Below are positions 24,118 through 26,736 of a DNA stretch of 64,000 nt, piece after piece. The translations under genes were made by a program, and so were the position numbers. Each line of letters starts with the position of its first letter. Position 1 is the first letter of the stretch. Under the pieces are notes generated by a model. It worked only from the letters and a program-made list of their open reading frames with translations. It was not told the DNA's origin and searched no databases. The DNA is from Tautonia marina (lineage in GTDB: Bacteria > Planctomycetota > Planctomycetia > Isosphaerales > Isosphaeraceae), in assembly GCF_009177065.1 (NCBI RefSeq), contig NZ_WEZF01000002.1, positions 248,001-312,000 on the forward strand, read 5' to 3'.

Positions 24118-24151
24118 CGGCCCGGTCGTCCCAAGACGACCGGGCCGTTTT
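24118..24151 (+). terminator. Strong rho-independent terminator
   Basis: A perfect 13-bp stem (24118-24130 with 24135-24147), CCAA loop, then TTTT. It ends the protease transcript or a small RNA in the preceding spacer and insulates the tRNA array. Confidence 0.9.
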
Positions 24152-24260
24152 CGATTCCCTTGAAGCCAGTCGACGAGACGCATCAGGGAAGCGCCGGTTT
24201 GCATCCCGCTGCTTCAGCCTGGCTTATCAGCACGACATTCTTATGAAACGCCACAATCAC

Positions 24261-24323: not shown

Positions 24324-24407
24324 GGAAGGGCAAGCCGATTGGCGACGGCAGCCGTCTTGAAAACGGCCGAGCGATGAGCCTTGGGGGTTCAACTCCCCCT
24401 CCTTCCG
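24324..24407 (+). tRNA. tRNA-Ser(UGA)
   Basis: Full class II cloverleaf of 84 nt. Acceptor GGAAGGG pairs with TCCTTCC (one G-T), anticodon loop CTTGAAA in a 5-bp stem gives anticodon TGA, an extended variable arm follows, and the T arm is GGGGG-TTCAACT-CCCCC. The discriminator is G. CCA is not encoded. Confidence 0.92.
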
Positions 24408-24441
24408 CCTGCGGGATGAAACGTTCCGAACCGATCGATTC

Positions 24442-24512
24442 GGGCTGCTGGTCCAAGGGGAAGACACCTGTCTTGCACACAGGAAATCGGGGTTCGATTC
24501 CCCGGCAGTCCA
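24442..24512 (+). tRNA. tRNA-Ala(UGC), divergent body
   Basis: Cloverleaf of 71 nt. Acceptor GGGCTGC pairs with GCAGTCC, and the third pair is G3-U70, the alanine identity element. Anticodon stem CCTGT/ACAGG encloses CTTGCAC, so the anticodon is TGC. The D arm (GTC/GAC) lacks the usual TAGCTCA block of bacterial tRNA-Ala, so the body is unlike the normal housekeeping gene. T arm CGGGG-TTCGATT-CCCCG. Confidence 0.85.
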
Positions 24513-24534
24513 CTCCTGAGCCGATCGCAACGAT

Positions 24535-24606
24535 GGTGTCCGTGGTGTAGCGGCAGCACCCGAGGTTGTGGGCCTCGAAGCACGGGTTCGAATCCCGTCG
24601 GACATC
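24535..24606 (+). tRNA. tRNA-His(GUG), array copy
   Basis: Anticodon stem CGAGG/CCTCG with loop TTGTGGG gives GTG. Acceptor GTGTCCG pairs with CGGACAT (one G-T), with an encoded G at -1 opposite C73, the histidine identity feature. It differs strongly from the canonical tRNA-His at 29770-29843. Confidence 0.85.
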
Positions 24607-24633
24607 CCTTCGACGAATCGACCATCACGACAC

Positions 24634-24703
24634 AGAGGTGTGCGCCTGGGAGCGCGGCGCGTCTCCAACACGCGATGACAGGGTTCGAATCCTTGCGCCT
24701 CTG
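24634..24703 (+). tRNA. tRNA-Trp(CCA), short D arm
   Basis: Only 70 nt. Acceptor AGAGGTG pairs with CGCCTCT, anticodon stem CGCGT/ACGCG with loop CTCCAAC gives CCA, and the T arm is CAGGG-TTCGAAT-CCTTG. Just 17 bases separate the acceptor and anticodon stems, so the D loop is shorter than normal. Discriminator G. Confidence 0.8.
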
Positions 24704-24736
24704 CTCGGCCATCCTTCCCGATGACCGCTGATCCCT

Positions 24737-24808
24737 ACCCCTGGAGTGTGTCGGATCGCACGCGACGCTTCGAACGTCGAGGACCAGGTTCAACTCCTGG
24801 CGGGGGGA
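24737..24808 (+). tRNA. tRNA-Arg(UCG), imperfect acceptor stem
   Basis: Anticodon stem CGACG/CGTCG with loop CTTCGAA gives TCG. T arm CCAGG-TTCAACT-CCTGG is perfect. The acceptor ACCCCTG against CGGGGGG has an A1-G72 mismatch and a U-G pair. It shares much of its body with the next tRNA, so one may be a duplicate of the other. Confidence 0.75.
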
Positions 24809-24825
24809 CTCACCCCAATCAAACC

Positions 24826-24896
24826 GCCCCCGGAGTGTGAGGGAGGCACGCGACCCTGCGAAGGTCGAAGCCCAGGTTCGACTCCTGGCGGGGGCA
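24826..24896 (+). tRNA. tRNA-Arg(GCG)
   Basis: Perfect acceptor GCCCCCG/CGGGGGC with discriminator A, anticodon stem CGACC/GGTCG with loop CTGCGAA, giving anticodon GCG, and T arm CCAGG-TTCGACT-CCTGG. Most bacteria read CGU/CGC with an ACG (inosine) anticodon instead, so GCG is unusual. Confidence 0.82.
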
Positions 24897-24919
24897 TTGA
24901 TTCTGTTCTGTTCATTCAA

Positions 24920-24990
24920 GACGCGGGAGCCAGACGGCCAGGCAACCGACTGCAAATCGGTGGAAGTGGGTTCGACTCCCACCCGCGTTT
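24920..24990 (+). tRNA. tRNA-Cys(GCA)
   Basis: Anticodon stem ACCGA/TCGGT with loop CTGCAAA gives GCA. Acceptor GACGCGG pairs with CCGCGTT (G-T at the first pair) and the discriminator is U, a cysteine identity element. T arm GTGGG-TTCGACT-CCCAC. Confidence 0.9.
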
Positions 24991-25116
24991 CTCCCGGCGG
25001 CTCAGAACCGTCGGGTCGTCTGAGGTCGCAGGGCCAGCGGCGCACTGCCCTCACCCTCCAAAGGGCGATCGGGCCGGTGTGTTCCGGACATGGGATCAAA
25101 ACGAAGCGGCTTCAGA

Positions 25117-25188
25117 TCGTGGTAGCTCAATTGGAGAGCACCGGATTGAGAATCCGGGTGTCGCAGGTTCGAATCCTGCCCACACTGA
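25117..25188 (+). tRNA. tRNA-like gene with GAG (Leu) anticodon but class I body and broken acceptor
   Basis: D arm GCTC/GAGC, anticodon stem CCGGA/TCCGG with loop TTGAGAA (anticodon GAG, a leucine anticodon), a 5-base variable loop and T arm GCAGG-TTCGAAT-CCTGC are all good. The acceptor ATCGTGG against CCACACT has two mismatches at pairs 2 and 3. True tRNA-Leu has a long variable arm. This may be a pseudogene or a non-standard tRNA. Confidence 0.6.
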
Positions 25189-25392
25189 CCGGGAACAGGT
25201 GTTGCGCCTGTTTCCACCCCGACGCGATTGCGTCACACCGAGCGCCCAAGGGAGGCCAGCAACCGCTCGATCCGCCCTCGTTCGACGCGAGTTGACGGAA
25301 CAAATGGCCCGGAACCACCGGGTCGGATCGACCGCCACCTCGCCAACCGATCCGAGGGCACGCACGCCCGAGAGGCCCTGAGGCCCGCCGCA
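25189..25392. other. Spacer between the tRNA array and the folded RNA candidate
   Basis: Just after the last tRNA, GGAACAGG and CCTGTTTCC (about 25191-25215) form a hairpin with one bulge and no T-run. The rest shows no tRNA or convincing coding frame. Confidence 0.35.
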
Positions 25393-25491
25393 ATGTCCCT
25401 CGATCGTCGATGGGTGAGGTCGTTTGTGAAGTTCCTTTCGTCCAGCGGAAGGCTTCACAGCGCGGCCAATCCCTCCGACCTTCAGGGACAT
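25393..25491 (+). ncRNA. Candidate structured RNA (small RNA or riboswitch-like leader)
   Basis: A nested set of exact helices closes about 100 bases: P1 ATGTCCCT/AGGGACAT (25393-25400, 25484-25491), P2 AGGTCG/CGACCT (25417-25422, 25476-25481), P3 TGTGAAG/CTTCACA (25425-25431, 25453-25459) and P4 CCTTTC/GGAAGG (25434-25439, 25447-25452) with loop GTCCAGC. A terminator on the plus strand follows 43 bases later, and the SPFH gene starts after that. I could not match it to tmRNA, SRP RNA, 6S or a riboswitch class I know. Confidence 0.55.
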
Positions 25492-25533
25492 CAACGCGAC
25501 GCCCCGCCCCTCGATGTGTGATCGACGGCCGTT

Positions 25534-25557
25534 CGGCCTTCCAAGGGCCGTTTTTTT
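25534..25557 (+). terminator. Rho-independent terminator after the structured RNA
   Basis: CGGCCTT (25534-25540), loop CCA, AGGGCCG (25544-25550), then seven T. An alternative hairpin GGCC-GTTC-GGCC (25527-25538) uses the same 5' arm, so the two folds exclude each other. Confidence 0.85.
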
Positions 25558-25629: not shown

Positions 25630-26736
25630 ATGGTTCTGATCAAGCGCATTCATGTTCGAAGTTATGAGATGGGCCTCCTCTTTCGCCGGGGAGAGTTCCA
25701 CGGCCTGCTCGGCGAGGGCACCCACTGGCTGTTCGACCCGCTCGGTCGGATCGAGGCCGAGGTCGTCTCCATGCGGGCTCCTCGGCTCGTGCACGATCGG
25801 CTCGACCTGATTGTCAAGTCCGGTGCTCTGAAGCCTCATGCCGAGGTCATCGACTTGAAGGACGACCGCCGAGCCCTGGTCTGGATCGACGGCCGTTTCT
25901 CCTGTGTGCTCGGACCGGGTCTGTATGCCTACTGGACCGGACCTCGCGACGTGCGGATCGAACTGGTCGACGCCCGCCGGCCTCGCTTCGAGCATGACGA
26001 CCTGAAGATCATCGCCCGGACCCCCGGCGCCGTCGGCTTGCTCGACCTCTGCACGGTCGATCGCAACCATGCCGGCGTCCTGTTCCTCGATGGTCAGTAC
26101 GCCGACACACTCGGCTCGGGGCTCTACGCTTTCTGGCGAGGCTCCGCCGAGGCCCGCGTCGTGGAGGTTGACCTCCGAGAGGCCACGCTCGACCTGACCG
26201 GCCAGGAGATCATGACCGCCGACACGGTCACGCTCCGCCTGAACGCTCAGGTGACCTTCGTCGTCAGCGATCCGAAGCGGGCCGTCTGCGCGGTCGACGA
26301 CCACCGCCAGGCCCTCTACCGCGAGGCGCAGCTGGTCCTTCGTGCCGTCCTTGGCGGCCGAGAGCTCGACACCTTGCTCTCCGACAAGGACAGCGTGGCC
26401 CGGGAGGCCGAGGACCTGCTCCGCGCCCGAGCGTCGAGTCTCGGCCTGGAGGTCCGATCGGCCGGCATCCGCGACCTGATCCTCCCGGGAGAAATGAAGG
26501 ACCTGATGAACAAGGTCACCGAGGCCCGCAAGGCCGCCGAGGCCAATCTCATCACCCGACGCGAGGAAACGGCCGCCCTCCGCAGCCAGGCCAACACCGC
26601 CAAGCTCCTGACCGACCACCCAGCCCTCATGAGGCTCCGCGAGCTTGAGGTTCTGGAACGCATCGCGTCCAACGGCCACCTCAACGTCATCCTCGGCGAG
26701 AAGGGACTCGCCGATCGGGTGGTCAACCTGCTCTGA
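25630..26736 (+). CDS. SPFH/slipin (stomatin-like) protein with repeated N-terminal motif
   Basis: A 368-residue SPFH-domain protein. The SPFH core is at about 185-310 (MTADTVTLRLNAQVTFVVSD, then LVLRAVLGGRELDTLLSDK), followed by a helical tail EARKAAEANLITRREETAALRSQ. No clear membrane helix is present at the N-terminus, unlike typical slipins. Instead, three similar segments at about 10-50, 75-115 and 142-182 share the pattern (R/D)-G-x-F/Y-x3-LG-x-GLYAFW. Such proteins organise membrane microdomains or oligomer cages (family knowledge). The transcript may be controlled by the folded RNA upstream. Confidence 0.8.
   Translation: MVLIKRIHVRSYEMGLLFRRGEFHGLLGEGTHWLFDPLGRIEAEVVSMRAPRLVHDRLDLIVKSGALKPHAEVIDLKDDRRALVWIDGRFSCVLGPGLYAYWTGPRDVRIELVDARRPRFEHDDLKIIARTPGAVGLLDLCTVDRNHAGVLFLDGQYADTLGSGLYAFWRGSAEARVVEVDLREATLDLTGQEIMTADTVTLRLNAQVTFVVSDPKRAVCAVDDHRQALYREAQLVLRAVLGGRELDTLLSDKDSVAREAEDLLRARASSLGLEVRSAGIRDLILPGEMKDLMNKVTEARKAAEANLITRREETAALRSQANTAKLLTDHPALMRLRELEVLERIASNGHLNVILGEKGLADRVVNLL

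What the first reader, a model, noticed from the sequence alone, without database searches (positions are those of the whole stretch)
24324..25188. Compact array of eight tRNA-like genes with non-standard features
Ser(UGA), Ala(UGC), His, Trp, Arg(UCG), Arg(GCG), Cys and a GAG tRNA lie within 870 bases behind an AT-rich promoter. Several have odd bodies: short Trp D arm, mismatched Arg(UCG) acceptor, class I GAG tRNA. Such arrays with degenerate tRNAs are typical of phages and mobile elements, where they may offset host tRNA cleavage. A canonical tRNA-His exists 5 kb away.
Basis: partly seen in the sequence, partly recalled or inferred. Interest (0 to 1): 0.74.

Follow-up and report, generated by a model that had tools for sequence, protein, structure and literature searches.

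The report
tRNA array fused to tRNA-like RNA module
Seven spare tRNA genes and a large structured RNA containing a fake tRNA sit just before the gene for its partner scaffold protein in a planctomycete bacterium; relatives of this RNA-protein pair in other phyla lie inside RNA-repair operons, so the cluster looks like part of a system for coping with broken tRNAs rather than phage debris.

Summary
The eight tRNA-like genes are real, and each isotype has a second, regular gene elsewhere. But they are not phage debris. Seven are a shortened copy of an ancestral chromosomal array of up to 37 tRNAs, in the same order across related genera. Their anticodons are invariant and their stems are kept by compensatory changes. 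The eighth, the 'GAG tRNA', is not a tRNA gene. It is the tRNA-like domain of a ~540-nt structured RNA (window ~25018-25556) lying before an SPFH/stomatin-type gene (25630-26736). Its body is conserved but its 'anticodon' is free (28 triplets in 58 loci). The RNA's 5' domain shows strong covariation, is in no Rfam family, and lies before the SPFH gene in about 60 of 65 loci from several phyla. A protein-blind search found the SPFH gene beside it in 28 of 30 planctomycete loci. In other phyla the pair sits in RtcR/sigma54-RtcA-RtcB RNA-repair operons. An SPFH plus tRNA-like RNA pairing in RNA repair was predicted in 2016 (from memory; paper not held). Union with a tRNA array is the new part. 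Function is inferred.

The parts
24119..24160 (+). strong terminator-type hairpin (GGCCCGGTCGTC..GACGACCGGGCC, then TTTT) in front of the array; candidate attenuator
   Evidence: an equivalent hairpin with T-run lies 13-17 nt before the first array tRNA in L164, L168, L169, L171, L176
24324..24409 (+). array tRNA-Ser(UGA); orthologues elsewhere are Ser(CGA)
24442..24513 (+). array tRNA-Ala(UGC), keeps G3:U70
24536..24608 (+). array tRNA-His(GUG), G before position 1 and C73 kept
24634..24704 (+). array tRNA-Trp(CCA) with short D-loop, conserved in 8 of 8 orthologues
24737..24809 (+). array tRNA-Arg(UCG), A1.G72 mismatch in this genome
24826..24896 (+). array tRNA-Arg(GCG), anticodon invariant in 15 of 15
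24920..24991 (+). array tRNA-Cys(GCA), U73, anticodon invariant in 16 of 16; last true tRNA before the RNA
25018..25118 (+). 5' domain of the structured RNA (model R1): P1 25018-25029 with 25106-25117 enclosing two further helices
   Evidence: (80 bits)
25116..25187 (+). tRNA-like domain (called Leu GAG): conserved elbow and T-arm, free anticodon loop, acceptor paired mainly over its inner 4 bp
25188..25556 (+). 3' part of the RNA: hairpin GACGCGATTGCGTC (25221), GCCCAAGGGAGGC (25244), GACGCCCCGCCCC (25498), GTGTGATCG (25516), final hairpin 25534-25550 with T7
25630..26736 (+). SPFH/Band_7 (stomatin-type) protein, 368 aa, no membrane helix by hydropathy; near-constant neighbour of the RNA

Best explanation
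The locus is a chromosomal, inherited module of three parts: (1) a reduced array of accessory tRNAs, once a nearly complete second tRNA set; (2) a ~540-nt structured RNA with an inbuilt tRNA-like domain that is unlikely to decode or be charged normally; (3) a soluble SPFH protein that most likely forms a scaffold with that RNA. Most likely job: response to RNA damage, chiefly tRNA cleavage. The spare tRNAs replace or outnumber cleaved housekeeping tRNAs. The RNA-SPFH complex uses the tRNA-like fold to dock or hold tRNA-acting nucleases, tRNA halves or repair enzymes. Shown: anatomy, conservation, covariation, RNA-SPFH pairing, and placement of related pairs in Rtc operons. Inferred: expression, aminoacylation, complex formation, the damage signal, and the attenuation control in front of the array.
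For: Array tRNAs keep anticodons and compensated stems and Ala G3:U70, His G-1:C73, Cys U73 (read). Array order is ancestral. RNA: P1 pairing score 17.5 against 11.96 +/- 0.45 for swapped partners; 83.3% of cells paired against 70.3 +/- 1.3 shuffled, 21 pairs changed on both sides, 0 of 500 shuffles; fold z -6.46. RNA next to SPFH: about 60 of 65 SPFH loci; 28 of 30 in a protein-blind search. Repair link: RtcR divergent with RtcA and/or RtcB beside the SPFH in L127, L130, L131, L142, L151, L177, related layouts in L135, L148; RtcA and RtcB at the far end of the array in L094; sigma54 sites just before the RNA in L127, L149, L151, L177, L178. Free anticodon: 28 triplets in 58 loci with invariant T-loop. 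Genome has RtcB and RtcA.
Against: In this genome RtcB lies 90 kb away, RtcA on another contig, and RtcR is absent; RtcB is nearly universal in the class (182 of 198), so its presence proves nothing. RtcR is rare in the class (8 of 198). The array here has shrunk to seven tRNAs. Many loci have RNA and SPFH without an array, and some genomes have the array far from the RNA. No expression or charging data.
Confidence: 0.58

Rival explanations
1. The structured RNA is a cis-acting leader (riboswitch-like attenuator) of the SPFH mRNA: its tRNA-like fold competes with real tRNA for some tRNA-binding factor and so controls read-through into the SPFH gene.
For: It lies directly upstream on the same strand and in the window ends in a terminator hairpin before the SPFH ribosome-binding site.
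Against: A T-run follows the 3' motif in only 13 of 25 loci; 540 nt with several domains is large for a leader; in Rtc operons it lies between sigma54 site and operon, already under RtcR-type control.
Confidence: 0.25
2. The array is horizontally acquired, decaying and dispensable.
For: Low tRNA scores; array reduced from 28 to 8 within the genus; the 2016 genome paper called such clusters degenerate.
Against: No phage or mobility genes; conserved order and synteny; invariant anticodons and compensated stems between genera.
Confidence: 0.1
3. The array is a translation-stress trn operon of the Anabaena kind, simply adding tRNA supply when translation is blocked, with the RNA and SPFH only neighbours.
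For: Anabaena carries a 26-tRNA operon, silent until translation is inhibited. Terminators directly before the arrays fit conditional expression.
Against: RNA and SPFH are joined to arrays in distant lineages too (L136, L143, L144, L152), too often for bystanders.
Confidence: 0.2
4. The array tRNAs feed aminoacyl-tRNA-dependent ligases or peptide pathways rather than translation.
For: Unusual bodies with intact identity elements.
Against: Nearly all isotypes are present in relatives; no transferase or ligase family beside the array in the proteins scanned.
Confidence: 0.05

Closest known systems
SPFH/Band-7 plus tRNA-like RNA modules of RNA-repair systems (Burroughs and Aravind 2016, NAR; recalled, paper not held)
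   Same: SPFH protein with an adjacent tRNA-like RNA; relatives beside RtcR/RtcA/RtcB and a nucleotidyltransferase
   Different: No ligase, RtcR or sigma54 site at this locus; joined to a large tRNA array; RNA here is shown to be ~540 nt with a conserved 5' domain
Anabaena trn operon (26 tRNAs, TrcR-repressed; PMC10272220)
   Same: redundant tRNA set in one unit beside housekeeping genes
   Different: plasmid-borne and protein-repressed there; chromosomal, with a hairpin terminator in front and the RNA-SPFH pair here
Degenerate tRNA clusters of planctomycetes (PMC4807772)
   Same: probably the same arrays
   Different: there read as horizontally acquired and dispensable; here shown to be under selection and tied to the RNA-SPFH pair
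Bacterial Y RNA (YrlA) of Salmonella rsr-yrlBA-rtcBA (PMC7790460)
   Same: noncoding RNA with a tRNA-like domain in an RNA-repair operon
   Different: partner there is Ro60/Rsr, here SPFH
GOLLD and ROOL RNAs
   Same: large structured RNAs, recalled to lie near tRNA genes
   Different: no match in Rfam scans

Membership tests
SPFH/tRNA-like RNA-repair module | SPFH/Band-7 protein | tested here: met
   Band_7 5.5e-31; stomatin
SPFH/tRNA-like RNA-repair module | adjacent tRNA-like RNA | tested here: met
SPFH/tRNA-like RNA-repair module | RNA ligase (RtcB or other) in the same operon | tested here: not met
   RtcB is 90 kb away; RtcB-like gene adjacent in L130, L131, L142, L151, L177
SPFH/tRNA-like RNA-repair module | RtcR and sigma54 promoter | tested here: not met
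   both present in L127, L151, L177
tRNA array / trn operon | dense run of tRNA genes redundant with the housekeeping set | tested here: met
   relatives carry 21-37
tRNA array / trn operon | conditional expression under translation stress | not testable with these tools
   no transcriptome available
phage or mobile-element tRNA cluster | phage or mobility genes around it | tested here: not met
   neighbouring proteins; SPFH protein not in phages beyond one weak partial match
Y RNA | Ro60/TROVE partner gene | not tested
   no genome search for TROVE was made; none among the neighbours scanned
GOLLD/ROOL or any Rfam family | match to a covariance model | tested here: not met
   only tRNA-type families and sub-threshold hits

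The most novel reading that the evidence does not exclude
An uncurated RNA class: a ~450-540-nt RNA with an embedded, non-decoding tRNA-like domain, bound by a soluble SPFH scaffold, that in planctomycetes and some other lineages is fused to a near-complete spare set of tRNAs held behind a transcription terminator: a stand-by translation kit released on tRNA damage.
Probability: 0.35. Interest if true: 0.87.

Novelty: new variant of a known kind. Interest (0 to 1): 0.7.

Why it matters
It gives long-puzzling tRNA arrays a molecular partner: a conserved RNA and an SPFH protein whose relatives sit in RNA-repair operons. That turns 'dispensable degenerate clusters' into a testable tRNA-damage system, supplies a covariance model for an RNA absent from Rfam, and points to an E. 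coli relative (locus at least 80% present in 1621 of 5426 complete genomes) that can be studied in the laboratory.

Tried and rejected
Phage/mobile origin: no such genes. RtcB co-occurrence: no contrast, nearly universal. sigma54 promoter before planctomycete arrays: none in the loci scanned. Known Rfam RNA: none. PADLOC defence family for the SPFH: none. A first sigma54 scan had a wrong position test and was redone. The Anabaena delta plasmid was not in the collection, so its trn operon could not be tested for the RNA. Burroughs and Aravind 2016 and Chen 2014 are not held.

Full report
OBSERVATION. The genome (7.07 Mb draft, 80 contigs) has 56 tRNA matches. I fetched the others and typed them: every array isotype has another, regular gene; Arg GCG alone has none with the same anticodon, but Arg ACG should cover its codons. 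The array tRNAs are among the lowest-scoring in the genome.

SETTING. Neighbouring genes are ABC transporter, lactate/malate dehydrogenase, MFS transporter, trypsin-PDZ protease, Band_7/SPFH, VKOR and Gfo/Idh: chromosomal, no phage genes.

THE ARRAY IS ANCESTRAL. Related genomes carry much longer arrays in the same order: 28 tRNAs in L158, 24 in L159, 25 in L164, 37 in L171 (these counts include a nearby tRNA-His or the tRNA-like domain in some loci). The window keeps one early Ser and the last block Ala-His-Trp-Arg-Arg-Cys. The flanking trypsin-PDZ, MFS, Ldh and Gfo/Idh genes are kept in the genus. Orthologous array tRNAs from different genera have invariant anticodons (Cys 16/16, Arg GCG 15/15, Trp 8/8, His 9/9, Asp 9/9, Phe 6/6) and 95-100% of stem cells paired, with 4-19 compensated pairs per tRNA. 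They are therefore selected as tRNAs. Read from the sequence, Ala keeps G3:U70, His keeps G-1 and C73, Cys keeps U73, which are known identity elements. Leu members of these arrays are mostly 74-76 nt, lacking the long variable arm of the genome's other Leu tRNAs.

THE EIGHTH 'tRNA' IS SOMETHING ELSE. The last element behind tRNA-Cys has a conserved body but a different anticodon in nearly every genome. In 58 loci with a 7-nt loop there are 28 different triplets, one of which would read a stop codon, while the T-loop is invariant and the anticodon stem 99% paired; the outer three acceptor positions are mostly unpaired. It cannot be a normal decoding tRNA. It is embedded in a longer conserved stretch between tRNA-Cys and the SPFH gene.

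THE STRUCTURED RNA. Helix P1 of the 5' domain pairs within each sequence far better than between sequences: mean score 17.5 against 11.96 +/- 0.45. On an 18-sequence alignment of the 5' domain, 83.3% of cells pair against 70.3 +/- 1.3 for shuffles, 21 pairs change on both sides, 0 of 500 shuffles reach any measure, and slid structures fall to 32-42%. This structure was partly chosen from the same sequences, so and the search hits on sequences outside the seed are the more independent tests. The tRNA-free model R1 matches upstream of the SPFH homologue in about 60 of 65 loci, with one weak, partial match in E. coli. The matched loci include Acidobacteriota (L145, L146, L147, L155), Desulfobacterota (L127, L130, L149) and Lindowbacteria (L143). 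R1 found nothing in Pontiellaceae L151, where the tRNA-like domain and the core motif were seen by pattern only. Class-wide R1 is present in 55 of 198 genomes, one copy each; the best 30 of these loci were found without any protein and 28 have the SPFH gene within 1.5 kb (one of the two misses, L181, lies at a contig end). The 3' part holds motifs far above chance (35 of 59 loci against 2.9; 25 against 0.9), and the 543-nt window copy folds with z -6.46 and forms P1. No Rfam family matches except tRNA-type families.

THE PARTNER. The SPFH protein has no membrane segment by hydropathy (best 19-aa mean 1.21), appears to carry three SPFH1-like repeats (read by eye from the sequence), and its core is related to stomatin. 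PADLOC has no match.

LINK TO RNA REPAIR. In L127, L130, L131, L142, L151 and Burkholderia L177 an RtcR gene is divergent just upstream and RtcA and/or RtcB-like genes follow the SPFH gene; L135 and L148 show parts of this; in Adhaeretor mobilis (L094) RtcA and RtcB lie at the far end of the tRNA array, with a nucleotidyltransferase and a KptA-like gene downstream. These assignments rest on tblastn among the loci and recognition of the protein sequences, not on a Pfam scan of each. sigma54-type sites stand just before the RNA in L127, L149, L151, L177, L178. At the window locus RtcR and the sigma54 site are absent and RtcB is 90 kb off. From memory, Burroughs and Aravind (NAR 2016) predicted SPFH/Band-7 modules with a novel tRNA-like molecule in RNA-repair systems; the paper is not held, so this is a lead, not a test. 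Hughes et al. (PMC7790460) show that the Salmonella repair operon answers to cleaved tRNAs and suggest its tRNA-like YrlA may inhibit the nuclease.

CONTROL. In five genera a strong hairpin with a T-run stands 13-17 nt before the first array tRNA, leaving no room for a promoter between them; array transcription should therefore read through it. This is inference from anatomy. The window keeps the hairpin at 24119-24160.

MECHANISM. Best supported: a tRNA-damage response module, with spare tRNAs as replacements and the tRNA-like RNA plus SPFH protein as scaffold or decoy. Rivals are a cis-acting SPFH leader, a general translation-stress array, and decay. Known kind: SPFH plus tRNA-like RNA, and tRNA arrays. 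New here: their union, the size and covariation-supported structure of the RNA, the free anticodon, the cross-phylum pairing counts, and evidence that these planctomycete arrays are not degenerate.

Noticed in passing
L032 (G000:C10:76243-76647): A second small cluster in the same genome, Phe-Tyr-Met with encoded CCA ends, unlike the other tRNAs of this genome; looks foreign.
   Followed up: no
L157-L176 arrays: Leu tRNAs of these arrays are mostly 74-76 nt, without the long variable arm usual for bacterial tRNA-Leu.
   Followed up: partly
L131 and L136, upstream of the SPFH gene: Two tRNA-like domains in tandem inside the RNA.
   Followed up: no
L164, L168, L169, L171, L176; window 24119-24160: Terminator hairpin almost touching the first array tRNA, suggesting attenuation control.
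   Followed up: partly
L178:3475-5131: E. coli slipin locus between a DUF3811 gene and lysC with a sigma54-type site and a reduced tRNA-like RNA; at least 80% of it is present in 1621 of 5426 complete E. coli genomes.
   Followed up: partly
whole genome G000: No tRNA-Lys(UUU) among the 56 tRNAs found; may be a draft gap or a candidate limit of the search.
   Followed up: no
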